DNA of 56,064 nt from a virus: positions 1 through 56,064 of the IMG/VR virus record IMGVR_UViG_3300025106_000003, one strand, 5' to 3'. How positions within the stretch are numbered: the stretch's first letter is position 1; every line of letters begins with the position of its first letter. This document shows positions 28,191 to 48,779 of this stretch, one piece after another. The notes under the pieces were generated by a model. The model ran no database searches. It saw only the letters and a program-made list of their open reading frames with translations, and was not told the DNA's origin. A program made the position numbers and the translations under genes.

Positions 28191-29231
28191 ATGAAAATAA
28201 AAAAACAAGAAGATGTTGCTGCCATGGTTGCCATGTATAATTCAGGCTTCTCTATGGAGAAGATAGGGGAAAAAATGCGCGTCTCTAGCTATATTGTAAA
28301 AAAGTCCCTGCAAAATAAAGTAGCGTTTCGTGCGCAGGGTTCATGGGCCAGAAAATATACGTGCAATAGTGATTTTTTTGATAAAATCAATACGCAGGAA
28401 AAAGCTTACTGGTTAGGTTTTTTATATGCCGACTGTTACGTAAGAGAGGGAGGAATTCAACTTCTTCTCAAGCAGTCAGACCAAGATCATGTAAAAAAAT
28501 TCAAACATGCCATAAAGGCGACCAACCCAGTAGAATTGCGCTCAGATAAGGTTAAATACAAAAACGGACAGACTGGAATTCAACATACGGCAAAGCTAAG
28601 AATCTCTGACGTGAAGATGTCAAAAGATTTGCAAAAACTTGGTTGTTTTATTAATAAAACGCACAAATTGAGTTTCCCAACGGAGAATCAGGTTCCAGAC
28701 AGATTAGTTAAACATTTTATGCGCGGATATTTTGACGGAGATGGCTCCGTTTGGCAGTGCGAATCTTCCCGCAGCAAAAAGTTTGGAGCCTCTCTAACTT
28801 CTACCAATGAATTTATTTTAAAATTTAAAAAGAAGTTGAATAAATTGACTAATTCAGAAATAGGCCAAATAAGTTTTCATAAAAATTCTAATTTTAGCAT
28901 TTTATCTTTTAGTAGCGTTGACTCGTTTAACATTCTGAGGGATTTCTTTTATAAGGACTCTGAGGTTCATATGGAGAGAAAATTCAGTAAATTTAAGCAG
29001 TTTCCGTCTACGACTCTGCGACATGCTCTGCGAGATACGCTAAACAAAATTATGGAGCATTTTGACGAGGGGGGCGAGTTGTCAACCAAAGATATTATGA
29101 AAAGATTAAGTGTCAAATTAAATAAAGCGCAGATGTTGGTTAAAAAACTTGTAGGGGAAAATAAAATTGAACAAGTTGGATACAAATGCCGCTACGCAAA
29201 GATTTATAGAAAAAAAATAACAAATGGATAA
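28191..29231 (+). CDS. Free-standing LAGLIDADG homing endonuclease
   Basis: 346 residues. An N-terminal helix-turn-helix (AMYNSGFSMEKIGEKMRVSSYIVKKSL) precedes two LAGLIDADG helices: KAYWLGFLYADCYV (~residue 72) and HFMRGYFDGDGSV (~residue 180). The C-terminus has a winged-helix-like region. It lies between primase and PD-(D/E)XK nuclease, apparently inserted at the nuclease's 5' end, and overlaps that gene's present start by 8 nt. A GTGTATAAG promoter-like element lies 8 nt before its ATG. Confidence 0.85.
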   Translation: MKIKKQEDVAAMVAMYNSGFSMEKIGEKMRVSSYIVKKSLQNKVAFRAQGSWARKYTCNSDFFDKINTQEKAYWLGFLYADCYVREGGIQLLLKQSDQDHVKKFKHAIKATNPVELRSDKVKYKNGQTGIQHTAKLRISDVKMSKDLQKLGCFINKTHKLSFPTENQVPDRLVKHFMRGYFDGDGSVWQCESSRSKKFGASLTSTNEFILKFKKKLNKLTNSEIGQISFHKNSNFSILSFSSVDSFNILRDFFYKDSEVHMERKFSKFKQFPSTTLRHALRDTLNKIMEHFDEGGELSTKDIMKRLSVKLNKAQMLVKKLVGENKIEQVGYKCRYAKIYRKKITNG

Positions 29232-30234
29232 CAATAAACCGACTGTCGCACTTTCCGCCTCCAAGATTAAAACACTTCAAACCTGCTCTTGGCTGTATCA
29301 CTGCAATTATGAAATTAAACTCCCTCAAGGCAGTAATGATGGGGCGAGGAGGGGATCGTGCGTGCATGAAATTCTAGAGCTTTTGACAAAAAACCGACAC
29401 AAAAAATATATAGATTTGATAGCGTCAGCTGAGCAGCCTTGCGAGGTAAAAGCTATAGAAAAATTAATGACTGCAAAATTTAAAAAACTCGAACTCGAAA
29501 AAGTAGAACCGGTCAAGCCGCTAAGCGGAAAAGTTTCCAATGAGACAAACTGGGATTGCGTGTGGAACATGCTCAAATTTACGATACAAAAAGAATACCT
29601 AGATATTGGAGATAAAAAAATTATTCATTCCGAATATGAATTTGACATGGAAAATGAATCTCCACGCTATAAAGTAAGAGGGTTTATAGACAGGCTATCC
29701 GAAGAGGATGGCGTGATAGAGATTTTGGATTTCAAAGGAAGCGCGCGCAAATTTAAAGGAGATGAAGAGTCGAGCAACGTACAGGCTATGATATACTCGT
29801 TGGTGGCAAGAAAAATATGGAAGCATTACAAGAGATACAGGGCTAATTTCTTTTTTATGAGATTCAAAAAAGACCCGTATCAATGCAATGAATTTTCAGA
29901 TGAGGAACTTAAAGGGTTTGAATCGTATCTTGAATATGTCACCGAAATCATTGAAAACTTCGACAGCAAAACTGCGGTGTCGAACATGGCCTCAGAATCA
30001 AAAGAGAAGTCATGGCTTTGCGGCAGGGGCAAATGGCAGTGTCCGTATAAAAAACCATTTTTTTTCTTTGTCGTAGAGGATGAGGCAGGCAAGCAGCTTT
30101 CATCGCACCTTTCCCACAAGGAGGCCGAGGAGGCTGCTTTAAAAATAAAGGATAAAAAGGTGAATATCGAAATGAAGCATTATCATGGATGCCCAAGCTG
30201 GAAAACGCTTGACAGCGACGAAAATCCGTTTTAA
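29224..30234 (+). CDS. RecB/Cas4-type PD-(D/E)XK nuclease with Cys cluster
   Basis: 336 residues. LSASKIKTLQTCSWLYHCNY, then GARRGSCVHEILELL, then VRGFIDRLSEEDGVIEILDFKGS and QAMIYSLVARKIW, reproduce the RecB-nuclease order (S-x-S-KI, GxxxH, GxxDR, DxK, QxxxY). Cysteines at ~21, in CGRGKWQC and in HGC could bind an iron-sulfur cluster as in AddB and Cas4. Beside the replisome it probably trims or resects DNA ends. Its present N-terminus seems rebuilt after the upstream endonuclease insertion. The next gene starts 10 nt after its stop. Confidence 0.75.
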   Translation: MDNNKPTVALSASKIKTLQTCSWLYHCNYEIKLPQGSNDGARRGSCVHEILELLTKNRHKKYIDLIASAEQPCEVKAIEKLMTAKFKKLELEKVEPVKPLSGKVSNETNWDCVWNMLKFTIQKEYLDIGDKKIIHSEYEFDMENESPRYKVRGFIDRLSEEDGVIEILDFKGSARKFKGDEESSNVQAMIYSLVARKIWKHYKRYRANFFFMRFKKDPYQCNEFSDEELKGFESYLEYVTEIIENFDSKTAVSNMASESKEKSWLCGRGKWQCPYKKPFFFFVVEDEAGKQLSSHLSHKEAEEAALKIKDKKVNIEMKHYHGCPSWKTLDSDENPF

Positions 30235-30244
30235 ACTGCAAAAA

Positions 30245-31009
30245 GTGAACATACTTCCATTTTTTAAATCTCATTACTCCATCAACAAGAGCATCCTAAC
30301 TCTTGACAAGGATCATGCCTCAAACAACGGCCCAAAGTCGATCATCAAGTTGGCGCAAGACTACGGGGTTTCTGACCCATTCTTGGTGGACGATAATCTA
30401 TCAGGATTTCTTGAAGCGTACTACAACGCAAAAGATGCGAACGTAAAGCTCAACATGGGCGTCAGGATTACGGTCTGTGATGACATGGACAAGAAGGATA
30501 AGGAGAGCTTAAAAAACGAATCCAAATATATCATCTTTTTGAAGAAGTCCAAGGGATATGACACGCTTTTTAAGATTTATTCTCACGCATCAACAAAAGG
30601 GCTTTATTATATCCCTCGCATAGACATGAAAACTTTGGAGTCTATGTGGTCAGACGATCTAGCATTGGGGGTGCCATTCTACGACAGTTTTCTGTTTAAA
30701 AATCATTTCACGATCTGCAATATTATCCCTCCCCAGTTCTGGTGCGAGCCAACTTTTTTCATCGAACAAAACGGACTGCCATTTGATGAGCGCTTCGGTG
30801 AAAGTTTAAAGGCGTATTTGGATACGGCTGGCTTAACTGCGCCGCTCCCCTGCCAGTCCATCTTTTATGAGCAGAAGGATGACTTCTTGGCTTATCTTAC
30901 CATGAGATGCATCGGGAAACGCACTACTTTACAAAAACCAAATCTAGATTTTATGTGCAGCGACCAGTTCTGCTTAGAATCATGGGAGGAAAAATGCAAG
31001 ACGAACTAA
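30245..31009 (+). CDS. dnaE: Separate PHP-domain fragment of DNA polymerase III alpha
   Basis: 254 residues from GTG 30245; the frame is open further upstream, but MNILPFFKSHYSINKSILTL is the natural beginning. It corresponds to the N-terminal PHP region of DnaE: SIIKLAQDYGVSDPFLVDDNLSGFLEAYYNAKD parallels the A-x-E-x-G-x3-AITDH...G strand, and LNMGVRITVCDD and GLYYIPRIDMKTL follow in family order. The metal-binding histidines are mostly missing, so it is probably structural. The polymerase catalytic part is encoded downstream, beyond the exonuclease gene. Confidence 0.7.
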   Translation: MNILPFFKSHYSINKSILTLDKDHASNNGPKSIIKLAQDYGVSDPFLVDDNLSGFLEAYYNAKDANVKLNMGVRITVCDDMDKKDKESLKNESKYIIFLKKSKGYDTLFKIYSHASTKGLYYIPRIDMKTLESMWSDDLALGVPFYDSFLFKNHFTICNIIPPQFWCEPTFFIEQNGLPFDERFGESLKAYLDTAGLTAPLPCQSIFYEQKDDFLAYLTMRCIGKRTTLQKPNLDFMCSDQFCLESWEEKCKTN

Positions 31010-31629
31010 TACGATTTGATAAAACTAGTAAGTTTCTCTTTCTCGATTTCGAGACTGAGGGGCTTTGCCTTAACCATAGATTCAATAAGCCTTGGCAGAT
31101 GTCTCTTTTGAAGTCGGTTAACGGTCAGAAGGTAGGCTCGCAGGAGGTGTGGATTAAGTGGCCGAAATTCAAATTTTCCAAAGGCGCAAGAATGCTGGCC
31201 CATTCATTTAGTGAATCTAAAATGGAGCAAGATGGCATCTCCCCCAAGGCAGCGCTTGCAATTTTAGACAAAGCCCTGTCGGAAACAGATTACCTTATCG
31301 GCCATAACCTGCTAGGCTTCGATGTTTTCATCATCAAAGCTATGTATGAGGCTTGCGGACAAAAAATGCCCAAGCTGCCAACTATCATAGATACTTTCCC
31401 CATTGCCAAGGGGGTTATAAATAATCTGCCCTACAAGGCTGGCGAGGATTTCTATTTTTACCAATACAAGCTCATCAATGAGATCATCAAAGGCTCAAAA
31501 ACAAGCCTTTCCGCGCTCGCCAAATACTATAATATTGAAATAGACGAGGGTAGATTGCACGATGCGACATACGATTTAAGTTTAAATTTAGCTATATGGA
31601 ACAAACTCAAATTTCAAATTCAATTGTAA
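30994..31629 (+). CDS. DnaQ-like 3'-5' proofreading exonuclease
   Basis: 211 residues from ATG 30994, which has a GGAGG Shine-Dalgarno and overlaps the PHP gene by 16 nt. ExoI motif FLFLDFETEGL (D18, E20), ExoII IGHNLLGFDVFIIK (~108) and ExoIII LHDATYDLSLNL (~197) place it in the DEDD family; the HD in LHDATYD indicates DEDDh. It should proofread for the phage DnaE, and the interleaved gene order (PHP, exonuclease, polymerase) supports a complex. Confidence 0.8.
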   Translation: MQDELIRFDKTSKFLFLDFETEGLCLNHRFNKPWQMSLLKSVNGQKVGSQEVWIKWPKFKFSKGARMLAHSFSESKMEQDGISPKAALAILDKALSETDYLIGHNLLGFDVFIIKAMYEACGQKMPKLPTIIDTFPIAKGVINNLPYKAGEDFYFYQYKLINEIIKGSKTSLSALAKYYNIEIDEGRLHDATYDLSLNLAIWNKLKFQIQL

Positions 31630-33416
31630 GTTTTACGTCTAACTTTGAGAAGTTGGATCTGCCACTCTACGGGGTGCGCTGCCCAAAGATCGAAGTGGAT
31701 AAAAAGTTTCTCGATTCTATCGGTATTGATAGTTTTGAAGATAATCATGATCTTCTGCGCCAACTTTGTAATGCCAGCTTCAAACGGCATATGCCGAAGT
31801 GGAAAGAGATGGGCTACGATATTGAGGAATATAAGGCGAGAGTGCGCCGCGAGGTGGAAACACTCAACAAGCTAGGCTTTGTTGACTACATCCTAATTAT
31901 TTGGGATGTGTTTAACTTCTGCAAGAAAGAAGGAATCCCTGTCGGCCTTGGTCGAGGAAGCGCGGCATCGAGCTTGGTTCTATATCTTTTGGGGGTCACA
32001 GGTGTAGACCCTATTAAATATAAGCTGCTGTTTGAGAGATTCGTTTCTGATACACGAGCTAAAAAGACGGTTGTTGACGGTGTCACTTATTTGGACGGAA
32101 GCATGTTGGCGGATATTGATAGCGACATTTGCTACTATCGCCGCCACGAGGTTGTTAAATATCTGGACAAGAAATATCCAAACCGAACCTCCAAGATGCT
32201 TACGGTATCCACCCTCTCTGGAAAGGCTCTTATTAAAGATTGCGGAAAGATCATCGGTGAAAAAGATGAGAGCGAGATGAATAAAGTCACCTCTCTTTTC
32301 CCGTCAAAATTCGGCAAGGTCGCGGAGGTTGAAGAGGTGTACGCCAACGTACCAGAATTCACAACTTGGGCGGACGAGAATAAGCTGGTATACTCAATCG
32401 CTTGTAAATTAAAAGACCTTATTAGAAATAAGGGGGTGCATGCTTCGGGAACGCTCGTCGGCTTTAATGAGTTGACGCAGACTACTCCAGTAGAGCTTTC
32501 TGCGGACAAGGAGACTGTCTCTGGATTCACTATGGACTGGGCTACCAAGGTTAATCTTAAACTTGACTTGCTTGGCTTGAAATCAGTATCTGTCATCGCT
32601 GAGGTCGAAAGGCTTACAGGCGTAAAATACATGGAGGTGGACTTGGAAGATTACGATACAATCTACGCGCACCTACAGGATTTGAAGGCCGCAAAGGGTA
32701 TTTTCCAAATTGAGGCAGACACCAACTATAAGGTGTGCCGCGAGGTTAAACCTAAGAACCTTGACCAGCTTGCGGCTGTGGTGGCCATCGCACGTCCCGG
32801 CGCATTAGCTTTCACCAAGCAGTACGCAGACTACGCACAGACGGGGGTATTTCCAGAGAGCTTCCCACAGATCGACGAGATTCTAAAAGATACAGGCGGC
32901 GCAATTCTTTACCAAGAGAGTCTTATGGCCATTGGAAACAAGGTCTTTGGCTTGAGCCTCAACGAGTCCGAAACCCTTCGTAAGATCGTGGGCAAAAAGA
33001 AAGTCGCGGAAATGCCTAAATGGGAACAGGTCATTAGGGATAACGCCAAGAGGCTTAAACTCCCTGACGAGGTCGCTGATTTTTACTGGAAGGCTCTTGA
33101 CGAAAGCGCAAACTATTCCTTTTGTAAGTGTCTATCGCCAGAGACAATTGTACAAAAAGACAGTTTGGAATATGTGCCAATGTGCGAGGTAAAAAAAGGG
33201 GACAAAATTCTCAGCTATAACCCAGACTCCGAAATGGATGAGAGCGTGGAGGTCATTGATATAATGCACAATTCTACTGAAATGTTTGAATTTGAAATGG
33301 AGGACGGCAGGACAATAACATGCTCAATGGAGCACAAGTTCATGTGTGAGGACAAAAAAATGAGAAAAATTTCAGAAATTTTAAGGACAGGCGAGAAAAT
33401 TATGTGTATAGAATGA
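31596..33416 (+). CDS. dnaE: DNA polymerase III alpha, N-extein plus split-intein N-half
   Basis: 606 residues. Residues 1-511 are the DnaE catalytic core: GLGRGSAASSLVLYLLGVTGVDPIKYKLLFERFVS and LADIDSDICYYRRHEVVKYL carry the C-family polymerase motifs (GRGS, PDIDxD-like), followed by NKGVHASGTLVG and KLDLLGLKSVSVI. After YSFCK it switches to an intein N-half (residues 512-606) and stops. The remaining polymerase lies 0.9 kb downstream. Activity therefore needs protein trans-splicing with the product of 34315-35535. The start overlaps the exonuclease end by 34 nt. Confidence 0.9.
   Translation: MEQTQISNSIVSFTSNFEKLDLPLYGVRCPKIEVDKKFLDSIGIDSFEDNHDLLRQLCNASFKRHMPKWKEMGYDIEEYKARVRREVETLNKLGFVDYILIIWDVFNFCKKEGIPVGLGRGSAASSLVLYLLGVTGVDPIKYKLLFERFVSDTRAKKTVVDGVTYLDGSMLADIDSDICYYRRHEVVKYLDKKYPNRTSKMLTVSTLSGKALIKDCGKIIGEKDESEMNKVTSLFPSKFGKVAEVEEVYANVPEFTTWADENKLVYSIACKLKDLIRNKGVHASGTLVGFNELTQTTPVELSADKETVSGFTMDWATKVNLKLDLLGLKSVSVIAEVERLTGVKYMEVDLEDYDTIYAHLQDLKAAKGIFQIEADTNYKVCREVKPKNLDQLAAVVAIARPGALAFTKQYADYAQTGVFPESFPQIDEILKDTGGAILYQESLMAIGNKVFGLSLNESETLRKIVGKKKVAEMPKWEQVIRDNAKRLKLPDEVADFYWKALDESANYSFCKCLSPETIVQKDSLEYVPMCEVKKGDKILSYNPDSEMDESVEVIDIMHNSTEMFEFEMEDGRTITCSMEHKFMCEDKKMRKISEILRTGEKIMCIE
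33129..33413 (+). other. Split intein N-half (IntN) in DnaE
   Basis: 95 residues. It starts with Cys1 (CLSPETIVQ), has VKKGDKILSYN and a block B with ITCSMEHKF (the T-x-x-H equivalent SMEH), and ends KIMCIE at a natural stop. Size and motifs match the N-halves of naturally split phage inteins of the gp41-1 type. Confidence 0.9.
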
Positions 33417-34351
33417 GCGCATTAAAACTAGATTCTACGCGAACCATCCCAGTTTGTATGTTTGAAACATGCCTAATAGACGGCAGGACAAGAAAACAAA
33501 TATGTGATCTTTTTCCAGCACGAAATGGAGGGGCGTATTATTTAGACAAATTCTGCAATCATCTTAAATATAATCATCAGACAAGCTTGATCAGTTATTG
33601 TGAGCGCTATTTTAATTTCTCATGGCCTACATGTCCGGTTAAAAAAACAAAGCTGGGCTATTGTATTAGCGGGAAGGGCGTAAAAATATCAGAATATTCA
33701 CTGGGTAGTGTAAATAAGAAGAATTGCGCCAAATTTTCAGATGGGTGCAAAAGATTATCCGAAGAAAGAAAGGGCAGAGGGAATCCTATGTATAAAAAGA
33801 CCCTTTGGAATAAGGGTAAGAATTATGAAATACCTTCCAGACAAGGAAAACCACTTTCCGAGATGCATCGCGCAAGCTTAAAAGAGGCCAGAGCAAAAAG
33901 CCCATATAAAGCTAGACATACAACCCCACACTCGGAACAGACAAAGAAAATCTTAGCTATTCGTCAGGCTGAAAAATATGCAGCGGGGATTTTTAAGCGC
34001 AGAACAGGTATAGAAATAAAAGTCGAACAATTTCTATCAACATTAAAATTAAAAGAAAGTTATATAGAACAGCATCAGGTCAAATATTTTACATTGGATT
34101 TCGCTTTACAAAATGGCAAAGTAGGCATAGAGTGTCAGGGTTCATTCTTTCATATTGATCCAAGAGTTTATCCGAACGGTCCAATCTGTGCTGTTCAAAG
34201 GCGAAATTTTGGAAGAGATAAGGCTAAAAGGAAATATTTAGCCAAGAGAGGTTGGACGATTATAGAACTTTGGGAAACAGAAATAAACAGCGGAGAATTT
34301 AAAGAAATACTATTGTGCAAGCTATCGGAATTAAATCTGTTAGAAGACTAG
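33413..34351 (+). CDS. Free-standing Vsr-like homing endonuclease between split-intein halves
   Basis: 312 residues from ATG 33413, overlapping the stop of the IntN ORF (ATGA). The middle has NUMOD3-like DNA-binding repeats (GRGNPMYKKTLWNKGKN, RQGKPLSEMHRASLKEARAKS). The C-terminus (TLDFALQNGKVGIECQGSFFHIDP ... KRKYLAKRGWTIIELWE) resembles Vsr/EDxHD-type nucleases, with Asp, Glu-x-Gln-Gly and a final W-x-I-I-E-L-W-E strand. This is the fractured-gene layout described for split inteins, where the endonuclease lies outside the intein and spreads the whole cassette. Confidence 0.82.
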   Translation: MSALKLDSTRTIPVCMFETCLIDGRTRKQICDLFPARNGGAYYLDKFCNHLKYNHQTSLISYCERYFNFSWPTCPVKKTKLGYCISGKGVKISEYSLGSVNKKNCAKFSDGCKRLSEERKGRGNPMYKKTLWNKGKNYEIPSRQGKPLSEMHRASLKEARAKSPYKARHTTPHSEQTKKILAIRQAEKYAAGIFKRRTGIEIKVEQFLSTLKLKESYIEQHQVKYFTLDFALQNGKVGIECQGSFFHIDPRVYPNGPICAVQRRNFGRDKAKRKYLAKRGWTIIELWETEINSGEFKEILLCKLSELNLLED

Positions 34352-34428
34352 GACAACAAAACTCTATTGATTTTGAGGTCAATAGCAGATTTCATAATTT
34401 TTATGCGGAGGGCCTTGTTACCTCAAAT
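34315..34428 (+). other. Split intein C-half (IntC) in DnaE
   Basis: 38 residues ending in the block F/G pattern FHNFYAEGLVTSN before Ser+1. The penultimate residue is Ser rather than His, a known variation. The length matches the C-halves of naturally split inteins. Confidence 0.9.
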
Positions 34429-35535
34429 AGTCACGCTGTAAGCTATAGCGCGATGGCTGCACTGACCGTCTTTTACAAATTCAACTATCCAAAGGAATTC
34501 TTCTTGGCTCTGTTGAGAATGGCCAAGCATGAAAGTGACAGCCTGACAGAGATTGCTGCGATTTCACGAGACATGGGGGATTTTGGCATTGAGCTTCTTC
34601 CCCCTGATTTAAATAAGAGCGGCGAGGACTTCGAACTAGAGGGCAATAATATCCGATTTGGATTATCCGCAATCAAGGGTATCAGTACCAAGATTATGTC
34701 AAAGTTCTCTGGATTCAAAGACAAGCATGCCTCGCGCATCGACCTCTTCCTTTCCGCAAAACAGGCAGGAATCTCCATCGGAGTGCTTTCCGCCCTCATT
34801 CAAGCTGGCGCAATCGAATCACTTCACAATCGTTCTCGCAGCTACATGGTTCTTGAGGCTCAAACTTGGAATATTCTCAAGGATAGGGAGAAATTGCTCG
34901 TGAAAGACCTTATCGAATCAGGCGAGTGTAGGGATGTATTGTCGTGCATCAAAAAACTCAATGAGGAGATCAAGAACGACAAGGGCATGCCGCAAATCAA
35001 GGATAGTCGATTCTCCACGATCAAGCGAGATTACGAGAAATATAAATCCATTTATTTGATGAACAGTCGAAACGAGGATCTTGCGAATTACTTCTATGAG
35101 AAAGAACTACTTGGTCGTTCGTATAGCCAATCTCTCTCCTCTATATTCAGCAAGAAATGCGAAAAGTTGATGTCTATCAAGGAGTTCCAAGAGGAACTGA
35201 ACCCGAATGAAAAGGGTCTTATTGTGGGCGTGGTATCTGAAAAGGTTTCTAAAACCTCCTCAAAGGGCAACCCCTACATCAAATACACAATCCACGACGA
35301 GAGCGCGCAGATTGACTGTTTTATCTTCTCCACGGCACATTCCGACAAAATTGGACTGATCCGTGAGGATAACGGCGGCAAACTTCCAGAGGAAAAGGAT
35401 ATTGTTGTACTCAAGGGTATGCGAAAAGACGAGACTGCCTGCTACGTTGACAAACTTGGCATCCAAAGCTCCAAGATCTTTATGAAATTGAAGGACTTAA
35501 AGGATGCAGAGGAGACTTCAGATGAAAATAGTTGA
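34315..35535 (+). CDS. dnaE: DNA polymerase III alpha, split-intein C-half plus C-extein
   Basis: 406 residues from GTG 34315, overlapping the endonuclease end by 37 nt. Residues 1-38 are IntC, ending RFHNFYAEGLVTSN, followed by Ser+1. Residues 39-406 (SHAVSYSAMAALTVFYKFNYPKEFFLALL) continue DnaE exactly where the N-part stopped; the canonical sequence is NKSHAxAYxxxxYxTAYLKxxYPxEF. The rest contains the fingers and helix-hairpin-helix region and a C-terminal OB-fold (GLIVGVVSEKVSKTSSKGNPYIKYTIHDESAQIDCFIF). Trans-splicing would restore an alpha subunit of ~880 residues, apart from the separate PHP piece. Confidence 0.88.
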   Translation: MQAIGIKSVRRLGQQNSIDFEVNSRFHNFYAEGLVTSNSHAVSYSAMAALTVFYKFNYPKEFFLALLRMAKHESDSLTEIAAISRDMGDFGIELLPPDLNKSGEDFELEGNNIRFGLSAIKGISTKIMSKFSGFKDKHASRIDLFLSAKQAGISIGVLSALIQAGAIESLHNRSRSYMVLEAQTWNILKDREKLLVKDLIESGECRDVLSCIKKLNEEIKNDKGMPQIKDSRFSTIKRDYEKYKSIYLMNSRNEDLANYFYEKELLGRSYSQSLSSIFSKKCEKLMSIKEFQEELNPNEKGLIVGVVSEKVSKTSSKGNPYIKYTIHDESAQIDCFIFSTAHSDKIGLIREDNGGKLPEEKDIVVLKGMRKDETACYVDKLGIQSSKIFMKLKDLKDAEETSDENS

Positions 35536-37430: not shown

Positions 37431-37502
37431 GCTCCTATAGTGTAGTGGTCAGCACGGAAGATTTTCAATCTTTAAGGTGGGTTTCGATTACCCATAGGAG
37501 TG
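37431..37502 (+). tRNA. tRNA-Glu (TTC)
   Basis: Acceptor GCTCCTA/TAGGAGT, discriminator G, no CCA (CCG). Anticodon arm GAAGA-TTTTCAA-TCTTT, T-arm TGGGT-TTCGATT-ACCCA. Confidence 0.85.
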
Positions 37503-37588
37503 CCGAGGATTGGTCGCACCAATCAGATTTCAGGGGATTTCGAGGTAGCCTGAACCAGAATAACAAAAATGCTCGACCAATTTATATT

Positions 37589-37661
37589 GCAGATTAGAGT
37601 ATGGGTAACTCGGTTGGCTCATAACCAATAGCAACGGATTCAAACGCCGTATCTGCTACCA
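37589..37661 (+). tRNA. tRNA-Met (CAT)
   Basis: Acceptor GCAGAT/ATCTGC ending TACCA; D-arm GAGT...ACTC; anticodon arm GTTGG-CTCATAA-CCAAT; T-arm ACGG/CCGT. Confidence 0.8.
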
Positions 37662-37662
37662 A

Positions 37663-37831
37663 TTTAAACACTAGTTAGTAGCGGTGGTCAGTTTTTGCCT
37701 TTAGTGGAGCAAACGTCCTTAAATCGACTCTCGCCCTCGCAGAGTTCGCTACTCACCTGAGTAAATACGTCAGCCGATGAGAACTTATGATACTAGTAAA
37801 TCTAAGTGCTAAAATCTGATTGGTGTTTAAA
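37663..37831 (+). ncRNA. 169-nt structured RNA closed by a 9-bp terminal stem
   Basis: TTTAAACAC (37663-37671) pairs perfectly with GTGTTTAAA (37823-37831). Nested inside, AGTAGCG (from 37677) pairs with CGCTACT, enclosing a tRNA-sized 77-nt unit with an ACTCT/AGAGT hairpin. No ORF and no recognised family. Confidence 0.4.
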
Positions 37832-37838
37832 CCTTTAT

Positions 37839-37912
37839 GGCTCTCTAGCTTAATGTAAAGCAATCGTTTCATACGCGATTAGATTTCCGGTCGATACGGA
37901 AGAGAGCTACCA
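37839..37912 (+). tRNA. tRNA with CAT anticodon (Met or Ile2)
   Basis: Acceptor GGCTCTC/GAGAGCT, A, encoded CCA. D-arm GCTT/AAGC, anticodon arm ATCGT-TTCATAC-GCGAT, T-arm TTCCG-GTCGATA-CGGAA. CAT could be elongator Met or lysidine-modified Ile. Confidence 0.8.
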
Positions 37913-37984
37913 TTACCACATAGCAGTCCGGTAATCCCGAATAGACAATACGGTTCGGGTTTAATGTGCGTAATCACTTTTTAT

Positions 37985-38077
37985 CCTTCGGTAGTTTAAC
38001 GATAAAACCCCTCGCTTATAACGAGTTTAGCGGTAGATTTCCGCGCAATGCAGGTTTGAATCCTGCTCGAAGGACCA
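37985..38077 (+). tRNA. tRNA-Ile (TAT) with hairpin variable arm
   Basis: Acceptor CCTTCGG/TCGAAGG, A, CCA. Anticodon arm CTCG-CTTATAA-CGAG, T-arm GCAGG-TTTGAAT-CCTGC. The variable region is ~24 nt with GCGG/CCGC, abnormal for a class I tRNA. Confidence 0.7.
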
Positions 38078-38080
38078 ATT

Positions 38081-38180
38081 TAGACTGTAGTTCAGCGGTA
38101 GATCGCAACCATACTATGTGGGAAAATACTCCTAAAAAGCGTATGGCTCTGATGACACAGGTTCGAATCCTGTCAGTCTA
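38081..38180 (+). tRNA. tRNA-like gene with 26-nt anticodon loop
   Basis: Acceptor TAGACTG/CAGTCTA and T-arm ACAGG-TTCGAAT-CCTGT are perfect. The anticodon stem CCATAC/GTATGG encloses 26 nt instead of 7. The anticodon cannot be assigned; the insert looks intron-like. Confidence 0.5.
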
Positions 38181-38344
38181 ATAATTTCTAACGTTAGTTA
38201 AGTCATGGTGATAGACGAGTAAGAATAGGTCGAATTAGGAGGCATTCTATTAGACTGATAAGAAGACTCCCATATGAAGGGTTTCGACTTTCTGAATGGA
38301 ACGAATTCGTGAAATCCACTGTGCAAATTAAACGCTTACGGGAC

Positions 38345-38430
38345 CGCCAGCGTGGTCGCCCGACTTGGGATCGGGATATTCAGCAGAGGGCAGCACTCTG
38401 GTAGGCGACATAGAGTGGGTTTCCAATTTC
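38345..38430 (+). tRNA. tRNA-Pro (TGG)-like, degenerate
   Basis: A perfect anticodon arm CCCGA-CTTGGGA-TCGGG (38359-38375) follows a D-arm-like GCG-TGGT-CGC. The T-arm is weak, ~37 nt lie between, and no acceptor stem can be paired. Confidence 0.4.
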
Positions 38431-38517
38431 TCACATCTTACAAAAATTGGTGGTGGAGTCTCTACCGCGAAATCGGTACGGCCCAAGCTGGCAACTTGCT
38501 CTAAAGTTGCATATTAG

Positions 38518-38592
38518 CCCTTCGTAGGCCATGAGCGAGCCGCAACCCTTAGAAGGTTGTGTATGTAGTTGCAACCACTACCGAAGGGACCA
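38518..38592 (+). tRNA. tRNA-Leu (TAG)
   Basis: Acceptor CCCTTCG/CGAAGGG, A, CCA. Anticodon arm CAACC-CTTAGAA-GGTTG, T-arm GTAGT-TGCAACC-ACTAC. The variable region is short (5 nt), which is odd for Leu. Confidence 0.8.
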
Positions 38593-38597
38593 TTTTA

Positions 38598-38668
38598 GCC
38601 CGTTTAGCTCAATGGGAGAGCCAATAGTTGATAATTATTAGACGGTGGATCGAAACCATCAATGGGCA
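38598..38668 (+). tRNA. tRNA-Ile (GAT)
   Basis: Acceptor GCCCGTT/AATGGGC, A, no CCA. D-arm GCTC/GAGC, anticodon arm AATAG-TTGATAA-TTATT, T-arm GGTGG-ATCGAAA-CCATC. Confidence 0.85.
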
Positions 38669-38676
38669 TAGTTTAT

Positions 38677-38752
38677 GGGTGCGTGACGGGAATGCATACC
38701 TAGTTGGTCGAGAGCCAACTGCTTGTGAGGTCGAGACTCACCGCGCCCACCA
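38677..38752 (+). tRNA. tRNA-Leu (GAG)
   Basis: Acceptor GGGTGCG/CGCGCCC, A, CCA. Anticodon arm GTTGG-TCGAGAG-CCAAC, T-arm GTGAG-GTCGAGA-CTCAC. Short variable region. Confidence 0.75.
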
Positions 38753-38974
38753 AGTCTGGATGGCTACTCAGTATCAAGACGGACTTCATAAATGTCTACC
38801 AATCTGAGATCGTTTCTGAGTTTGTGATAATCATTAACTTAGCGTAACCCTATTTGCGAAAGAGGAAACACCTTAAATAGAAAACAATTTAACCTAGAAA
38901 AAACGGGTGACGAGTCCCGTAGTCGGCACTGGTCGGCTGGATGGTAAGTATCATAGTCTAAGTTATTCACCAAT

Positions 38975-39055
38975 GCGATAGTCGGATAGTGGTTCATTCC
39001 GCCTCTCTTCCAAAGAGGTTTATGGTCGTGGGTTCGAATCCCACCTGTCGCACCA
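38975..39055 (+). tRNA. tRNA-Gly (TCC), copy 1
   Basis: Acceptor GCGATAG/CTGTCGC, A, CCA. Anticodon arm CCTCT-CTTCCAA-AGAGG, T-arm GTGGG-TTCGAAT-CCCAC. Confidence 0.9.
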
Positions 39056-39059
39056 ATAT

Positions 39060-39113
39060 GCCAGTAGCAACTTGCAAGTTTATCGGCTTCATGGGCTGAT
39101 AATGCTGGCACCA
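39060..39113 (+). ncRNA. 51-nt two-arm tRNA-like gene with encoded CCA
   Basis: A perfect 7-bp acceptor GCCAGTA/TGCTGGC, discriminator A and CCA enclose only two hairpins: AACTT/AAGTT and TATCGGC-TTCATGG-GCTGATA with a 7-nt loop. There is no room for three arms. It could be a decayed tRNA or a functional minimal one; the ends look well kept. Confidence 0.45.
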
Positions 39114-39433
39114 ATTTGTGGTCATTGAGGGGAATAAATTATCGTGGGGGTTACGAACCACTATAAATAAATAAGTAATAAAAAGGTGTCTATTCAACGA
39201 CCTGAGCCACAAAAAATTTCAAAACCTAGATAAGACAACTTACCGAGCCGCTTACTCATCGGACAAAGACGTAAAGTGGTGGGTGCCACTTATCAGGTAT
39301 TAGCTATGCCTCCTGTCCGGTCGCATAGCTTGAATTAATTTCGAAGCTCCCCGCGAAGGAGTCCTAGTTCGGAAAAGCATCCTCCTTGTATGCTGTAAAA
39401 GGGTGAGAATCCCAACGGGCCAATACAATTTTT
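39114..39433 (+). ncRNA. Structured non-coding stretch between tRNA-Gly copies
   Basis: No credible gene lies in these 320 nt. Visible helices: AAGTGG/CCACTT near 39275, AGCTATG (39302) with CATAGCT (39324), CTCC-CCGCGAA-GGAG near 39350, and AGCAT/ATGCT near 39380. It carries one copy of a repeat (39203-39231) shared with 40673-40726, and ends GGGCCA like a tRNA 3' end. Confidence 0.35.
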
Positions 39434-39507
39434 GCATCATTAGTTTAGTGGTAAAACTTTTGCCTTCCAAGCAGAGTTCGTCGGTTCGATTCCGACATGA
39501 TGCTCCA
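39434..39507 (+). tRNA. tRNA-Gly (TCC), copy 2
   Basis: Acceptor GCATCAT/ATGATGC, discriminator T, CCA. D-arm GTTT/AAAAC, anticodon arm TTTGC-CTTCCAA-GCAGA, T-arm GTCGG-TTCGATT-CCGAC. Confidence 0.9.
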
Positions 39508-39527
39508 TAAAAGCGTGTGGCGCGATA

Positions 39528-39619
39528 AAGCGCGTAAAGTCGCCAGCGTGTAGGTAACATGCGGATAACTACACCAACAGACCCGCCTCTTGTGGGTTAA
39601 AATCCTATCGCGCTTACCA
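39528..39619 (+). tRNA. tRNA-like gene, anticodon not assignable
   Basis: Acceptor AAGCGCG/CGCGCTT is perfect with A and CCA. GTGTAG/CTACAC encloses a 15-nt loop where the anticodon arm should be, and the T-arm (GTGGG-TTAAAAT-CCTAT) is wobble-rich. Confidence 0.4.
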
Positions 39620-39659
39620 ATTTAAAGAACGTGGCGGAAGTCAAACGCTTTCGTTTAAG

Positions 39660-39700
39660 TCCTCTATAGCTCAGAGTAGAGCATCGGCATTGTCCGAAGG
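39660..39700 (+). pseudogene. 5' half of a tRNA
   Basis: TCCTCTA, then TA and a regular D-arm GCTC-AGAGTA-GAGC, then a partial anticodon arm TCGG/CCGA. No matching T-arm or 3' acceptor follows before the homing endonuclease gene, so it looks like a broken tRNA. Confidence 0.4.
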
Positions 39701-39786
39701 TCAGAGAAGTAACGAACTCTTAGATGCAAAGACAACGAAGACACAAAAGCTTAGTGTGAAAAGTCCAAACCTTTTCCGTTCTTTAA

Positions 39787-40272
39787 TTATTTAAGAGATT
39801 CAGATTGTTTTACAATTTGCTTACATAATAAAATAAGCTCGTCGTAAAGTAAATCTTGTTTAATTCTATTGGCTTTGTTAGAAGTTAGTCCGCAATTTTC
39901 TAGGGAGGAGTCTCCTCCGCGAGATGTAGGAATAATGTGATCTAATGAATAATCTTCTGGTTTATCTAAATCTATCAATTCCCCAGTCAAATAACATTTT
40001 GGGACAGGGCCGATTTTATTTAAAAGATCCTTTAGAGTAAACCGAATTATTTTAGGTCTGGTTTTACTTTTCGGATTGCCTCGATAGAAGTCTGACATCT
40101 TAGTAACCAATGGGTTTCTTTTGCGATAATTTTTATACGCCTGACTCATTGACTTTTTTCGGTTTGGACTAAAATGATAAATTAAAGTCCACTTAGATAT
40201 TTGAAGTTCATCGGAAATTTCCTGATAAGTTTTTCCGTTTTCTAACATTTTTATTATTTTTTCTTTGTCCAT
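39787..40272 (-). CDS. HNH homing endonuclease
   Basis: 161 residues from the second ATG (40272), which an AGTGTAAGTAT promoter-like element precedes closely. The N-terminus is a helix-turn-helix (MLENGKTYQEISDELQISKWTL). The HNH core is KCYLTGELIDLDKPEDYSLDHIIPTSRGGDSSLENCGLTSNKANRIK: DH, the central Asn and the final N/K residues are present. It lies antisense to the tRNA array beside a tRNA fragment and is probably a selfish element targeting it. Confidence 0.8.
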   Translation of the reverse strand: MDKEKIIKMLENGKTYQEISDELQISKWTLIYHFSPNRKKSMSQAYKNYRKRNPLVTKMSDFYRGNPKSKTRPKIIRFTLKDLLNKIGPVPKCYLTGELIDLDKPEDYSLDHIIPTSRGGDSSLENCGLTSNKANRIKQDLLYDELILLCKQIVKQSESLK

Positions 40273-40329
40273 ATGCAATACTTACACTTGTAAGACAGTA
40301 ATGTGAAACTTGCAATGGATATATTAAAT

Positions 40330-40405
40330 GGGGTTGTAGCATAAGAGGAAGTGCGCTTGTTTTGCAAACAAGAGTGTGTGATTTCGAGCATCATCAACTC
40401 CACCA
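40330..40405 (+). tRNA. tRNA-Ala (TGC)
   Basis: Acceptor GGGGTTG/CAACTCC, A, CCA. D-arm GCAT/GTGC, anticodon arm CTTGT-TTTGCAA-ACAAG, T-arm GTGAT-TTCGAGC-ATCAT. Confidence 0.88.
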
Positions 40406-40414
40406 TTTATTTAT

Positions 40415-40491
40415 CGCTACTGAGCAGGAACGGTGACAGGCACGAGACTGAAAATCTTGGGAACTCGGTTCGACTCCGAGAGTAGCGGCCA
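40415..40491 (+). tRNA. tRNA-Phe (GAA)
   Basis: Acceptor CGCTACT/AGTAGCG, G, CCA. Anticodon arm CGAGA-CTGAAAA-TCTTG, T-arm CTCGG-TTCGACT-CCGAG. Confidence 0.88.
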
Positions 40492-40987
40492 ATGAAAACA
40501 TGGTAGGCTCTATGCAGACCTCCGGTAAAATCCGGCGTGTTGGGTTAGTCGATAAGACCCTCCAATTTCCCGAATACCAAGGCGGGTTCCGCTGACCAGA
40601 TCCAGTGTGGTAGCTACTCAGGCGAGATAGCGATAACGAGATGCGTAAAAAGCCCTTAACGGTTGCAATCAGTGAGCCACAAAAAAGGTTAGTTATTCGG
40701 GATTTAAATTTTCACAAAACCTAGATCGGGGTATACAAACGACGAAGTTGCGCTAGTAGGTCGCTAAAATACGCTGTGCGGTAATAGGATAATGTAACGC
40801 AATACAGAAAGCTAGAAGTTAGGGGAGGCAACTCTCAGTCCTTTTAGTCCTTTGTGAAAAATTTTGAGAGCAGCATTAACTTGCTTGAAATGGGTTAAGT
40901 CCTAAACTCTCATGGTGTGCAGACCTATCCTGTAATAGTAGCAATCCTCTACGAATTCGGCTCGATAAGAGTATGGATAAATTTTAT
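40492..40987 (+). ncRNA. Structured non-coding stretch including a 135-nt stem-closed RNA
   Basis: No ORF of interest lies in these ~495 nt. TCCCGAATA (40568-40576) pairs with TATTCGGGA (40694-40702), enclosing 117 nt. Further on, AGGATA (~40785) can pair with TATCCT (~40930), and TGAGAG with CTCTCA encloses a tRNA-sized unit near 40865-40915. It contains the second copy of the 39203 repeat. It could be one large ornate RNA or several decayed tRNAs. Confidence 0.35.
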
Positions 40988-41062
40988 AGGTTAGAGTATC
41001 AACAGCATGATTACCTCTCTGTCGAAGAGGATCGAGCGGGGCAGCACCCGTCTAACCTGCCA
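40988..41062 (+). tRNA. tRNA-Asp (GTC)
   Basis: Acceptor AGGTTAG/CTAACCT, G, CCA. Anticodon arm CCTCT-CTGTCGA-AGAGG, T-stem GCGGG/CCCGT with a 6-nt loop GCAGCA that lacks the usual TTC. Confidence 0.75.
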
Positions 41063-41070
41063 ATTTAAAT

Positions 41071-41157
41071 ACATGGGTGGAGGAATGGTAAACTCAGCGG
41101 GTTGTTACCCCGCCTTTCGAAAGAAAATTGAACGTTCAAGTCGTTCTCCATGTGCCA
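41071..41157 (+). tRNA. tRNA-Asn (GTT) with 16-nt hairpin variable arm
   Basis: Acceptor ACATGGG/TCCATGT, G, CCA. Anticodon arm GCGGG-TTGTTAC-CCCGC, T-arm GAACG-TTCAAGT-CGTTC. The variable region contains CTTTCGAAAG, abnormal for a class I tRNA. Confidence 0.88.
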
Positions 41158-41162
41158 TATAA

Positions 41163-41250
41163 GCCAACGTGACCGGAATTGGTATCGGCCCGTTTTTGTA
41201 AATCGGTATGGGGAAACCCTTTGCAGGTTCGACGCCTGTCGTTGGCTCCA
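41163..41250 (+). tRNA. tRNA-Thr (TGT) with 16-nt hairpin variable arm
   Basis: Acceptor GCCAACG/CGTTGGC, T, CCA. Anticodon arm CCGTT-TTTGTAA-ATCGG, T-arm GCAGG-TTCGACG-CCTGT. The variable region contains GGGGAAACCC. Confidence 0.88.
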
Positions 41251-41259
41251 ATAATTTAT

Positions 41260-41343
41260 GCAATCGTCTGTTAGCGGCAATACAAACTGACTTTTAATCA
41301 GTCGCCCATTTGGGCTTCGAGAGTTCGAGTCTCTCCGGTTGCA
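41260..41343 (+). tRNA. tRNA-Lys (TTT) with 16-nt hairpin variable arm
   Basis: Acceptor GCAATCG/CGGTTGC, A, no CCA. Anticodon arm ACTGA-CTTTTAA-TCAGT, T-arm GAGAG-TTCGAGT-CTCTC. The variable region contains GCCCATTTGGGC. The antisense endonuclease ORF ends inside this tRNA. Confidence 0.88.
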
Positions 41344-42445
41344 AATCTTCTAAGTTAATATATTCTTTTTCATACCATAATTCAAATGAATACCCATGTT
41401 TAAGATATTCTTGACGTTTATCTATCATATTTTGGTAATCTAGGGTATATTTACTTTTCACCTCAATTATTTTATTATACGCTGGAAGATAAAAATCTGG
41501 AATTGCTACTCGATTCATCAGTTTTTGAGAATCCCAATAAACGATGCGTAATCCTTCTACCTCATAATCTATTTTTTGTTCATCAAAAATTTTGGCTAAT
41601 TCTAATTCGTAAGATGATCTATAAAAAACTCGCTTGTTGTTCCATGTAGTATGGAACCCATGCTTATATCTTAAGCAGGATGGTGGTGTTTGCCTGCCAG
41701 ATATTAGTGCGTTATTATGAGATTGAGATAAGTTTCTAAAACCTATACCAAGGCACGTTAACAATTTAGATAAATTTCCAACATTATTGTGGTTATATTT
41801 GTCGCAGATTTGTTGTAGAGATAGCTTTCGATCCCAGTAATCTTCTCGTAGCATTAGGGAAACACGATCAAATTCGCGATAAGCGTCAACGCTCCCCAGT
41901 GTGGTGAGATCAAACCCAAAGTATTTATTTAGCCCTTTAAATAATTGAGGGCTTTTACAGATTTCCTTACGCTCACATTCAGATTTCCCACAAATATTAC
42001 ATTTTCTTATTTTTGCATTATATTGTGCTGCTTTTCTCACTTTTCGTAACTTCCTACAGCCAGAACATATTTTTTTCCCCATATTTTTTGAATATAATAA
42101 TATGTCCGCGCCACATTTTATACAGTTGCTTGATATTTTTGGTGCATGCGCGTTGCTATATATGGCAGCACAGGAGCGTGAACAAAATAAGTGTTTGCTT
42201 TTTTTAACCTGACATATCGGGCGCGTAAACTTACTATCACATACCTCGCATGAATATTCTTGAGCGGTTGTTTTTCGTTTCGTATCGCAAAGTCTAGAGC
42301 ATATATCGCTTTGAGAACCGCTTATTATCGAGTGGTATATATTCTTTTTAGTTCTTTGAAATACTTTATGACAAGCATCACATTCTAAATTCAACAGCGT
42401 TTTTTGTGCAGCATTTTGGTATTCAGATTCGGTATAAAGTTTCAT
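41294..42445 (-). CDS. Zinc-finger homing endonuclease with PD-(D/E)XK-like domain
   Basis: 383 residues from the ATG at 42445 (MKLYTESEYQNAAQ), chosen because an AGTGTAATTATAC element lies just before it. The N-half holds several Cys pairs (CDAC, CEVC, CSRSC, CIKC, CSGC, CNIC) of zinc-ribbon type. The C-half (VFYRSSYELELAKIFDEQKIDYEVEGLRI ... AIPDFYLPAYNKIIEVKSKYTL) is a PD-(D/E)XK-type nuclease (PDF...EVKSK). Its last ~16 codons are read from the 3' half of tRNA-Lys on the other strand. A selfish element of the tRNA array. Confidence 0.75.
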   Translation of the reverse strand: MKLYTESEYQNAAQKTLLNLECDACHKVFQRTKKNIYHSIISGSQSDICSRLCDTKRKTTAQEYSCEVCDSKFTRPICQVKKSKHLFCSRSCAAIYSNAHAPKISSNCIKCGADILLYSKNMGKKICSGCRKLRKVRKAAQYNAKIRKCNICGKSECERKEICKSPQLFKGLNKYFGFDLTTLGSVDAYREFDRVSLMLREDYWDRKLSLQQICDKYNHNNVGNLSKLLTCLGIGFRNLSQSHNNALISGRQTPPSCLRYKHGFHTTWNNKRVFYRSSYELELAKIFDEQKIDYEVEGLRIVYWDSQKLMNRVAIPDFYLPAYNKIIEVKSKYTLDYQNMIDKRQEYLKHGYSFELWYEKEYINLEDLQPERLELSKPKWATD

Positions 42446-42600
42446 ATATGTATAATTACACTTATCAACTCCTTTTGGGAGCATCTTTCTATTACCACCG
42501 GACCCACCATTTTACGTAAAAGAAATTCCTCTTTCCATTCGGGAATAGGTGGAAAGTGATAAGGAGGGGTAAAAGTCCCAACCTTCCCACATTTTAGTAT

Positions 42601-42677
42601 GGTCTTATCATCCAACTGGCAGGATTCCCGTCCGATTAACGGGGCATGATTGGGTTCGAATCCCTCTAAGACTACCA
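42601..42677 (+). tRNA. tRNA, anticodon probably GAT (Ile)
   Basis: Acceptor GGTCTTA/TAAGACT, A, CCA. D-arm ATCC/GGAT, anticodon stem CCCGT/ACGGG around CCGATTA (C instead of T at position 33), T-loop TTCGAAT with only three good stem pairs. Identity uncertain. Confidence 0.55.
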
Positions 42678-42760
42678 TCAGTCTGCGGTAAGCGCAGACA
42701 TAAATTTTATATCAAAAAGGTGAAATTCCCGTTCGTCTGTAAAAGGCTTTGGTATATTAC

Positions 42761-42834
42761 CGCCTGCTAGTTTAAATTATAGAACAACCCCATGAAGAGG
42801 GGTAGATGTCGATTATCCACGACAAGGGCGACCA
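42761..42834 (+). tRNA. tRNA with GAA anticodon (Phe-like), degenerate acceptor
   Basis: D-arm GTTT/GAAC, anticodon arm ACCCC-ATGAAGA-GGGGT, T-stem TGTCG/CGACA, then A and CCA. Only the first four or five acceptor pairs (CGCC/GGCG) form. Confidence 0.5.
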
Positions 42835-42836
42835 TT

Positions 42837-43112
42837 TTATTCCTTGAAATGCACTTCTCTGTGGCAATTTGCGCATAGAAGATCGCACTTATTTATTTCT
42901 GCGACAATCTCTTCCTGAGAAAAGCCTTCGCCGTACATGGCAGAGGAAAGCTTAAACTTCTTCTCTTTCGGGTTCCTGTGATGAAACTCAAGGGCGTCCA
43001 GACATTTGGAGTAACCGCAAGTTTTGCATTTGCCTCCCGCAAGTAATTTAAATCGATTTTTTGCAAGCTTTCTTCGCATAGCTTTCGTCAGTGAGGGAGA
43101 TTTAATTGCCAT
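42837..43112 (-). CDS. Small HNH endonuclease
   Basis: 91 residues from the ATG at 43112. KCKTCGYSKCLDALEFHHRNPKEKKFKLS followed by EINKCDLLCANCHREVHF is a compact zinc-bound HNH nuclease: two CxxC pairs, the FHH catalytic site and a CxxCHRExH terminus. It stops 2 nt from the encoded CCA of the preceding tRNA, and a CGTGTATACTAT promoter-like element lies before its ATG, divergent from the PEP-CTERM-like gene. Confidence 0.78.
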   Translation of the reverse strand: MAIKSPSLTKAMRRKLAKNRFKLLAGGKCKTCGYSKCLDALEFHHRNPKEKKFKLSSAMYGEGFSQEEIVAEINKCDLLCANCHREVHFKE

Positions 43113-43169
43113 ATTAACAATAGTATACACGATTTAATGACAAAAGGGTGTATTTACAGGAAGAATCCC

Positions 43170-43742
43170 ATGAAATCAAAATTGTACAAACTTATCTTCG
43201 CTTTAGCGTTTTCGGTTGCGTTTTGCTGCTGCGATGAAACAGTCGCGCAGCTTCCCGCGCCGAACCAGATCGTTGTTAATACGGGCGGCACTTTATTTCT
43301 CAGCGGAATAGAAGTCATTCCAAATAACACAAATATCAAATTAAATGGAGGCGAAATAGACATCATTGGGGGCGGCACAGAAACCGTAGGAAAATTGACT
43401 CTCTCAAAAGACTCCGCAATCAACATCGACACGCTGATGAATTTTTCCCTTTATTTTAAGAATAGCTCTATGGAGAAGTGGAAGGGAAACTTAATCATAA
43501 CAGGATGGACTGGAGACGCTTACGGAGGATACACGACTAAAATATTTGTAGGCAATAACGCTAATGGATTAAATCAAAATCAGCTTAACTCAATATCGTT
43601 TGCTGGTTTTGGAAATGGCGCGATACTTCTTGGAAGCGGCGAACTGTGTCCGATTGCCGTGCCAGAACTCAATCCTTGGACTGGAGCGGTGGCGATCTTC
43701 CTGCTGATAGTGGCTATTGAATGCCGCATGAAAAAAAGATAA
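43170..43742 (+). CDS. PEP-CTERM-like secreted/surface protein of verrucomicrobial type
   Basis: 190 residues from ATG 43170. An N-terminal signal peptide (KLYKLIFALAFSVAFCC) leads into a beta-strand repeat region (LNGGEIDIIGGGTETVGKLTL). WKGNLIITGWTGDAYGGYTTKIFVGNNANGLNQNQLNSISFAGFGNGAILLGSGEL matches the end module of verrucomicrobial autotransporter-associated/PEP-CTERM proteins. The C-terminus (VPELNPWTGAVAIFLLIVAIECRMKKR) is PEP-like motif, membrane helix and basic tail, with PEL instead of PEP. It is probably host-derived and exported to the cell surface. Its place among tRNAs makes it an accessory (moron) gene. Function unknown. Confidence 0.7.
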   Translation: MKSKLYKLIFALAFSVAFCCCDETVAQLPAPNQIVVNTGGTLFLSGIEVIPNNTNIKLNGGEIDIIGGGTETVGKLTLSKDSAINIDTLMNFSLYFKNSSMEKWKGNLIITGWTGDAYGGYTTKIFVGNNANGLNQNQLNSISFAGFGNGAILLGSGELCPIAVPELNPWTGAVAIFLLIVAIECRMKKR

Positions 43743-44028: not shown

Positions 44029-44104
44029 ATTTTATGGAGCGATAGTTTAAATGAAGAACACTGCAATAATGCAGAGGTGTGTGATCGTAATCCGCAAACT
44101 CCTC

Positions 44105-44182: not shown

Positions 44183-44192
44183 TTTTTTATAT

Positions 44193-44269: not shown

Positions 44270-44274
44270 CAAAT

Positions 44275-44349: not shown

Positions 44350-44356
44350 TTTTTAT

Positions 44357-48778: not shown

Positions 48779-48779
48779 A

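What the first reader, a model, noticed from the sequence alone, without database searches (positions are those of the whole stretch)
31596..35535. Fractured dnaE: split intein with a Vsr-like endonuclease between its halves
The polymerase stops after YSFCK + IntN (95 aa), a separate endonuclease ORF follows, then IntC (38 aa) + Ser+1 resumes DnaE at SHAVSYS. All splice-site residues except the penultimate His are present. The fractured-gene layout is known for phage split inteins (gp41-1, NrdJ-1 type). What stands out is the host gene: the site lies four residues downstream of the equivalent cyanobacterial DnaE split-intein junction (AEY/CFNK), so two split inteins appear to have colonised the same conserved block independently.
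Basis: partly seen in the sequence, partly recalled or inferred. Interest (0 to 1): 0.85.

Follow-up and report, generated by a model that had tools for sequence, protein, structure and literature searches.

The report
Phage polymerase gene split by intein
In this phage the gene for its DNA-copying enzyme is broken in two by a mobile element whose halves should rejoin the protein after it is made; relatives show the element entering intact genes with neighbouring DNA, swapping or losing its DNA-cutting enzyme, and once occurring as a single piece.

Summary
Confirmed: dnaE (31596-35535) is broken into an N-half ending in a 95-aa IntN, a Vsr-like homing-endonuclease gene, and a C-half starting with a 38-aa IntC. 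All splicing residues are present (penultimate Ser instead of His; block-B Ser instead of Thr). The layout is a known kind, the phage 'fractured gene' (for example PolB of phage Aes123). The window belongs to a lineage of viral dnaE inteins at one site, YSFNK|SHS; I found more than 30 other contigs. The 29 inteins on a tree form one group (96/93), and nesting inside the cyanobacterial DnaE inteins, which sit four codons upstream, is rejected (p-AU 0.002). A distant common ancestor of the two groups is not excluded. Mobility is visible: L002 and L003 are about 97-98% identical (protein) to the intein-free L010, except for about 107 codons next to the insert, which match the window-type allele: an asymmetric co-conversion tract. 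At this one site the nuclease is Vsr-like, LAGLIDADG, HNH fused to IntN, or a 512-aa phage type. Two alleles keep only the last codons of the nuclease gene, one keeps a truncated nuclease, and one intein is contiguous. Trans-splicing and cleavage are inferred, not shown.

The parts
31596..33128 (+). DnaE N-extein, 511 aa (polymerase core up to YSFCK)
32814..33128 (+). last 105 codons of the N-extein: the allele block that travels with the intein (in L002/L003 it is of window type although the rest of the gene is of L010 type)
33129..33413 (+). IntN, 95 aa (Cys1, block B SMEH), stop TGA 33414-33416
33413..34351 (+). Vsr-like homing endonuclease gene (ATG 33413, 312 aa; GTG 33404 is an alternative start)
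   Evidence: purifying selection between relatives
33731..33844 (+). NUMOD3-like DNA-binding motif of the endonuclease (matches phrog_21964; Pfam NUMOD3 matched only in homologues, above its cut-off in L275)
33992..34282 (+). Vsr-like nuclease domain (LDF...IECQGSFFHIDPR...RD...W)
34315..34428 (+). IntC, 38 aa (GTG start inside the endonuclease 3' end; His of block F; ends TSN)
34429..35535 (+). DnaE C-extein, 368 aa (Ser+1; HhH and OB regions)
30185..31009 (+). separate PHP-domain gene, next to the polymerase core (context)
30907..31629 (+). separate RNase_T/DnaQ-like exonuclease gene (context)

Best explanation
A mobile split intein occupies the conserved YSFNK|SHS motif of a phage DnaE polymerase. 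The N-half carries IntN and the C-half carries IntC; the halves should associate and splice in trans by the class 1 route (Cys1, Ser+1, terminal Asn) to give an 879-aa polymerase. The Vsr-like endonuclease encoded between them should cut intein-free dnaE alleles near the site during co-infection; repair then copies intein, endonuclease gene and adjoining dnaE sequence into the recipient. Shown by sequence: anatomy, empty and occupied alleles, the co-conversion tract, and purifying selection on IntN and endonuclease between related alleles. Inferred: trans-splicing, the cleavage site, and homing as the cause of the tract.
For: Intact splicing residues: block-B His, block-F His and terminal Asn are invariant in 29 viral dnaE inteins and Asp114 is present in 27; C-extein residue +1 is Ser or, in L015, Cys. 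IntN L002-L003 dN/dS 0.058; endonuclease 0.055 and, L029-L030, 0.046. Sporadic distribution: of the 80 best DnaE relatives 78 have an empty site and one is occupied. L002/L003 versus L010: about 97-98% aa identity elsewhere but about 37-40% over the three blocks next to the insert, and identical DNA for 17 codons from codon +6. Trees disagree as a transfer predicts: body groups L002/L003 with L010 (body with window rejected, p=1.5e-5); flank groups them with window (flank with the empty alleles rejected, p=0.005). In L271/L278 the endonuclease is deleted to its last codons and in L276 to a 93-aa fragment, yet IntN and IntC stay intact, which is expected only if the halves still rejoin. Same layout in the PolB1 locus of phage Aes123, whose intein is studied as a trans-splicing intein (PMC12707363).
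Against: No splicing or cleavage was measured. The AlphaFold model of the endonuclease is poor over the nuclease domain (pLDDT 31-49) and had no significant structural match. A putative nuclease-domain His (FFHIDPR) is Asn in L018. In L002/L003 the aligned IntC start codon is GTC, so their start must lie upstream. The donor of the L002/L003 tract was not found; window is only 71% identical to it over the flank.
Confidence: 0.87

Rival explanations
1. Genes in pieces without splicing: the endonuclease broke dnaE and the two polypeptides act as a two-subunit polymerase, the intein parts being relics.
For: A two-piece ribonucleotide reductase split by a homing endonuclease that works as separate peptides is known (cited in PMC10448857). 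No splicing was measured here.
Against: Splicing residues are invariant across 29 diverged inteins, IntN is under purifying selection, and both halves persist intact after the endonuclease is deleted. A relic would decay.
Confidence: 0.06
2. Simple transfer of the cyanobacterial DnaE split intein into phage, with slippage of the insertion point by four codons.
For: Same gene and block, split at a similar position, both lack the penultimate His; in cyanobacterial genomes the DnaE inteins are the best matches to the phage profile. A sister relation is not rejected (p-AU 0.41).
Against: Nesting in the cyanobacterial clade rejected; mean identity only 28% against 35.5% to a Campylobacter phage NrdA intein; different insertion codon.
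Confidence: 0.05
3. The intein spreads by ordinary phage recombination at a conserved block and the endonuclease is a passenger or already inactive.
For: Alleles without endonuclease persist (L271, L278, L276); one contiguous intein without nuclease (L294).
Against: Endonuclease dN/dS about 0.05 in two pairs; the transferred tract abuts the insertion site and ends within five codons of it, as a break at the site predicts; different nuclease families occupy the same gap.
Confidence: 0.12
4. Assembly or sequencing artefact joining unrelated reads.
For: Metagenomic source.
Against: The same layout in many contigs from different metagenomes, with diverged sequences and open frames.
Confidence: 0.01

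Closest known systems
Aeromonas phage Aes123 PolB1 split intein with VSR endonuclease (JN377899)
   Same: Replicative phage polymerase gene broken between IntN and IntC with a Vsr-type endonuclease gene between, overlapping reading frames; its intein is studied as a split intein (PMC12707363)
   Different: Host is PolB, not DnaE; intein ends in HN; only distant endonuclease similarity (23% over 105 aa, E about 0.06)
Fractured genes with split inteins and Vsr-related endonucleases (Dassa et al. 2009, PMC2677866, paper not held)
   Same: Layout, phage setting, DNA-synthesis host gene, Vsr-related free-standing endonuclease (definition from my own knowledge; cited in PMC12350094 as the source of the EDxHD/Vsr domain)
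Cyanobacterial DnaE split inteins (Npu, Ssp)
   Same: DnaE host, same conserved block, class 1 residues, no penultimate His
   Different: Inserted four codons upstream (AEY|CFNK), no endonuclease between the halves, separate clade, about 28% identity
gp41-1 and NrdJ-1 phage-type split inteins
   Same: Split intein from phage or environmental DNA; gp41-1 matches at 3e-13 and NrdJ-1 at 3e-6
   Different: Other host genes; gp41-1 falls outside the phage DnaE group
Pseudomonas phage MIJ3 PolB split intein with HNH endonuclease (PMC6892783)
   Same: Fractured phage polymerase with an endonuclease ORF between
   Different: PolB host and HNH nuclease

Membership tests
Fractured gene (split intein with endonuclease gene between) | Conserved enzyme gene broken in two, IntN at the end of one ORF and IntC at the start of the other | tested here: met
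Fractured gene (split intein with endonuclease gene between) | Free-standing endonuclease ORF between the halves, same strand | tested here: met
   33413-34351
Fractured gene (split intein with endonuclease gene between) | Uninterrupted homologue gives the extein with an exact joint | tested here: met
   866-aa intact DnaE in L004-L012 aligns across the joint; 78 of 80 relatives empty
Fractured gene (split intein with endonuclease gene between) | Trans-splicing to a full-length enzyme | not testable with these tools
   needs co-expression
Class 1 intein | Cys or Ser at position 1, block-B His, block-F His, C-terminal Asn, Cys/Ser/Thr at +1 | tested here: met
   penultimate His absent as in Npu and Ssp
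Vsr/EDxHD homing endonuclease family | Sequence match to the Vsr family | tested here: met
   TIGR00632 E=7.1e-6, but below its curated cut-off for true Vsr; phage VSR hits
Vsr/EDxHD homing endonuclease family | Vsr-like fold of the nuclease domain | tested here: inconclusive
   low-confidence model, no structural match
Vsr/EDxHD homing endonuclease family | Site-specific cleavage | not testable with these tools
   needs enzyme assay
Cyanobacterial DnaE split intein clade | Falls inside the clade | tested here: not met
   p-AU 0.0002 to 0.002 against nesting
Cyanobacterial DnaE split intein clade | Same insertion codon (AEY|CFNK) | tested here: not met
   four codons downstream

The most novel reading that the evidence does not exclude
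One intein lineage holds a single codon position in viral dnaE while its nuclease is repeatedly exchanged or lost: Vsr-like in both main subgroups, replaced by LAGLIDADG (L286, L291-L293), by HNH fused in frame to IntN (L031) and by a 512-aa phrog_559-type nuclease (L034, L301); deleted with a 93-aa fragment left (L276); deleted to the last codons that overlap IntC (L271, L278); and in one case the intein is contiguous (L294), possibly re-joined. This would be a stepwise record of how fractured inteins gain, swap and lose nucleases and become plain split inteins.
Probability: 0.6. Interest if true: 0.72.

Novelty: new member of a known kind. Interest (0 to 1): 0.6.

Why it matters
Plain split inteins such as the cyanobacterial DnaE intein carry no nuclease, and how they arise is an open question. 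Here one site holds alleles with nuclease, with nuclease remnants, with no nuclease, and contiguous, plus intein-free near-identical recipients with a visible co-conversion tract. That makes the route from homing intein to nuclease-free split intein directly testable with natural alleles. The inteins are also a new source of DnaE-derived split inteins, with Ser+1 and a site next to the best known one.

Tried and rejected
Search for the phage IntN in 84,980 bacterial and archaeal genomes: no relative, at limited pattern sensitivity. Sequence search of the endonuclease against solved structures: nothing for the single sequence and only chance-level hits for the profile. AlphaFold and fold search of the endonuclease: low confidence, no significant match. 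Relatives of a virus record cannot be drawn by the genome search. Simple cyanobacterial transfer: rejected by tree tests. A NrdA-type sister (closest by identity) was rejected in one tree (p-AU 0.013). Chance or artefact: rejected by many independent contigs. That the L004-L011 empty alleles, not L002/L003, had their flank replaced was considered: L002/L003 lie inside those alleles on the body tree (sister to L010), so gain in L002/L003 needs fewer steps. Whether L294 is ancestral or re-joined: unresolved; it is sister to the LAGLIDADG alleles (98/94), not inside them (pairing with L286 rejected, p-AU 0.038). Key papers not held: Dassa 2009, Caspi 2003, Carvajal-Vallejos 2012.

Full report
OBSERVATION. 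The window is an IMG/VR virus record. Searches show the stated layout: N-ORF 31596-33416, endonuclease 33404-34351, C-ORF 34315-35535. The N-extein ends YSFCK; IntN is 95 aa; IntC is 38 aa and ends TSN before SHAVSYS. The three frames overlap: the endonuclease ATG at 33413 overlaps the IntN stop (ATGA), and the IntC start lies 37 nt inside the endonuclease end. Family searches confirm the polymerase halves, the intein and the Vsr-like nuclease. The fused intein halves match solved Npu DnaE and gp41-1 inteins.

SAME SITE IN OTHER VIRUSES. Scans of viral contigs with the polymerase, the endonuclease and the intein halves gave intact dnaE genes (L004-L012, 866 aa) and more than 30 other contigs with an intein at the same codon. 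Of the 80 DnaE genes most like the window's, 78 are uninterrupted, mostly YSFNK|SHS; one carries the intein and one could not be parsed by the script but is an intact 855-aa ORF. This sporadic presence fits a mobile element.

TRANSFER WITH CO-CONVERSION. L002 and L003 carry the fractured gene; L010 does not. Outside the insert the proteins are 97-98% identical, but over the three 30-column blocks upstream of the joint identity falls to 37-40%. At codon level the divergent block begins about 107 codons upstream (raised synonymous divergence starts further up) and ends within five codons downstream, after which 17 codons are identical. Trees agree: on the gene body L002/L003 are sisters of L010, and grouping them with window is rejected (p=1.5e-5); on the 105-aa flank they group with window (90/77), and grouping with the empty alleles is rejected (p=0.005). 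The simplest reading is that a window-type allele entered an L010-type gene together with its upstream flank.

RELATION TO THE CYANOBACTERIAL INTEIN. Cyanobacterial DnaE inteins were fetched and compared; the Npu and Ssp reference rows were typed from my own knowledge and Npu agrees with the chain printed. Mean identity is 28%. In a 27-row tree phage (98/97) and cyanobacterial (99/98) inteins are separate; in a 38-row tree the 29 phage DnaE inteins are one side of a branch (96/93). Placing the phage group with Ssp DnaE is rejected (p-AU 2e-4, 8e-4 and 0.002). A sister relation is not rejected (0.41). With insertion points four codons apart, two separate insertions into one conserved block is the better reading. 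Conservation around the joint is high but not extreme (120 of 903 windows as high or higher).

THE ENDONUCLEASE AND ITS EXCHANGES. The window endonuclease matches Vsr (TIGR00632, E=7e-6) and has a NUMOD3-like region. Homologues in the second subgroup of alleles are full-length relatives (hhalign 99.9%, E=2e-35 for L281; BLAST), so the Vsr type occurs in both main subgroups. Other alleles at the same site carry LAGLIDADG (L286, L293), NUMOD4-HNH fused to IntN (L031) or a 512-aa phrog_559-type nuclease (L034). L276 differs from its 94-95% identical relative L279 by a 675-nt deletion inside the endonuclease, and L277 shows the same reading at its intein halves in a second assembly. L271 and L278 keep only 27 nt between IntN stop and IntC start, and this stretch with its continuation reads in the endonuclease frame as the endonuclease C-terminus (SDGTFKEDLKCKLLKLN in L278; with a stop in L271). 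So the nuclease was lost and the split intein kept. L294/L295/L297 have a contiguous intein in one ORF.

HOW IT WORKS. Inferred: trans-splicing by the class 1 route gives an 879-aa polymerase; the endonuclease drives homing into empty alleles. Support is the invariance of catalytic residues, purifying selection, persistence of both halves after nuclease loss, the co-conversion tract, and the Aes123 PolB1 locus, which has the same layout and whose intein is studied as a split intein (PMC12707363). Not shown: splicing, cleavage, the exact cut.

LIMITS. Dassa et al. 2009 is not in the library, so I cannot say whether DnaE at this site was among its loci. The endonuclease fold could not be verified. 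The absence in bacterial genomes depends on the scan's peptide patterns. The start of IntC in L002/L003 is unresolved. Intein trees rest on about 130 columns, and L034/L301 are on a long branch.

Noticed in passing
window 45180-45597: A tmRNA gene (Rfam RF00023, 79 bits; ARAGORN agrees) within a cluster of about 22 tRNA genes spanning 37431-49848 in this phage.
   Followed up: no
window 28191-29231: Free-standing LAGLIDADG endonuclease gene between the primase-like gene and the PD-(D/E)XK gene; in L002 and L010 those two genes overlap directly. It is a distant relative of the LAGLIDADG genes found inside other dnaE inteins (L286, L293).
   Followed up: partly
window 30185-31629: The polymerase is in pieces beyond the intein: the PHP domain and the DnaQ-like exonuclease are separate genes upstream of the DnaE core, also in relatives such as L002 and L010.
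   Followed up: partly
L022:2243-6497: Another split intein in a viral dnaE, at a different site inside the PDID catalytic motif (PDID|CDVS), with under 200 nt between the halves.
   Followed up: no
L294:2297-3175: The dnaE that holds the contiguous intein has a second intein C-half upstream (AVHN before SAAGCLISY, the GRGSA motif), so this gene carries two intein sites.
   Followed up: no
L032:4635-6162: Split intein in a clamp-loader-like gene (joint at DYMN|CFGKVQ), about 140 nt between the two ORFs.
   Followed up: no
L016:2575-3207: A Mom-family DNA-modification gene lies between the exonuclease gene and the fractured dnaE.
   Followed up: no
L002/L003:7632-7700: The codon aligned to the IntC start is GTC; the IntC must start upstream (ATG 7632 or GTG 7650) or at an unusual codon.
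   Followed up: partly
L018:5001-5954: The FFHIDPR motif of the Vsr-like endonuclease reads YFNIDPR (His to Asn), possibly a weakened or inactive nuclease.
   Followed up: no
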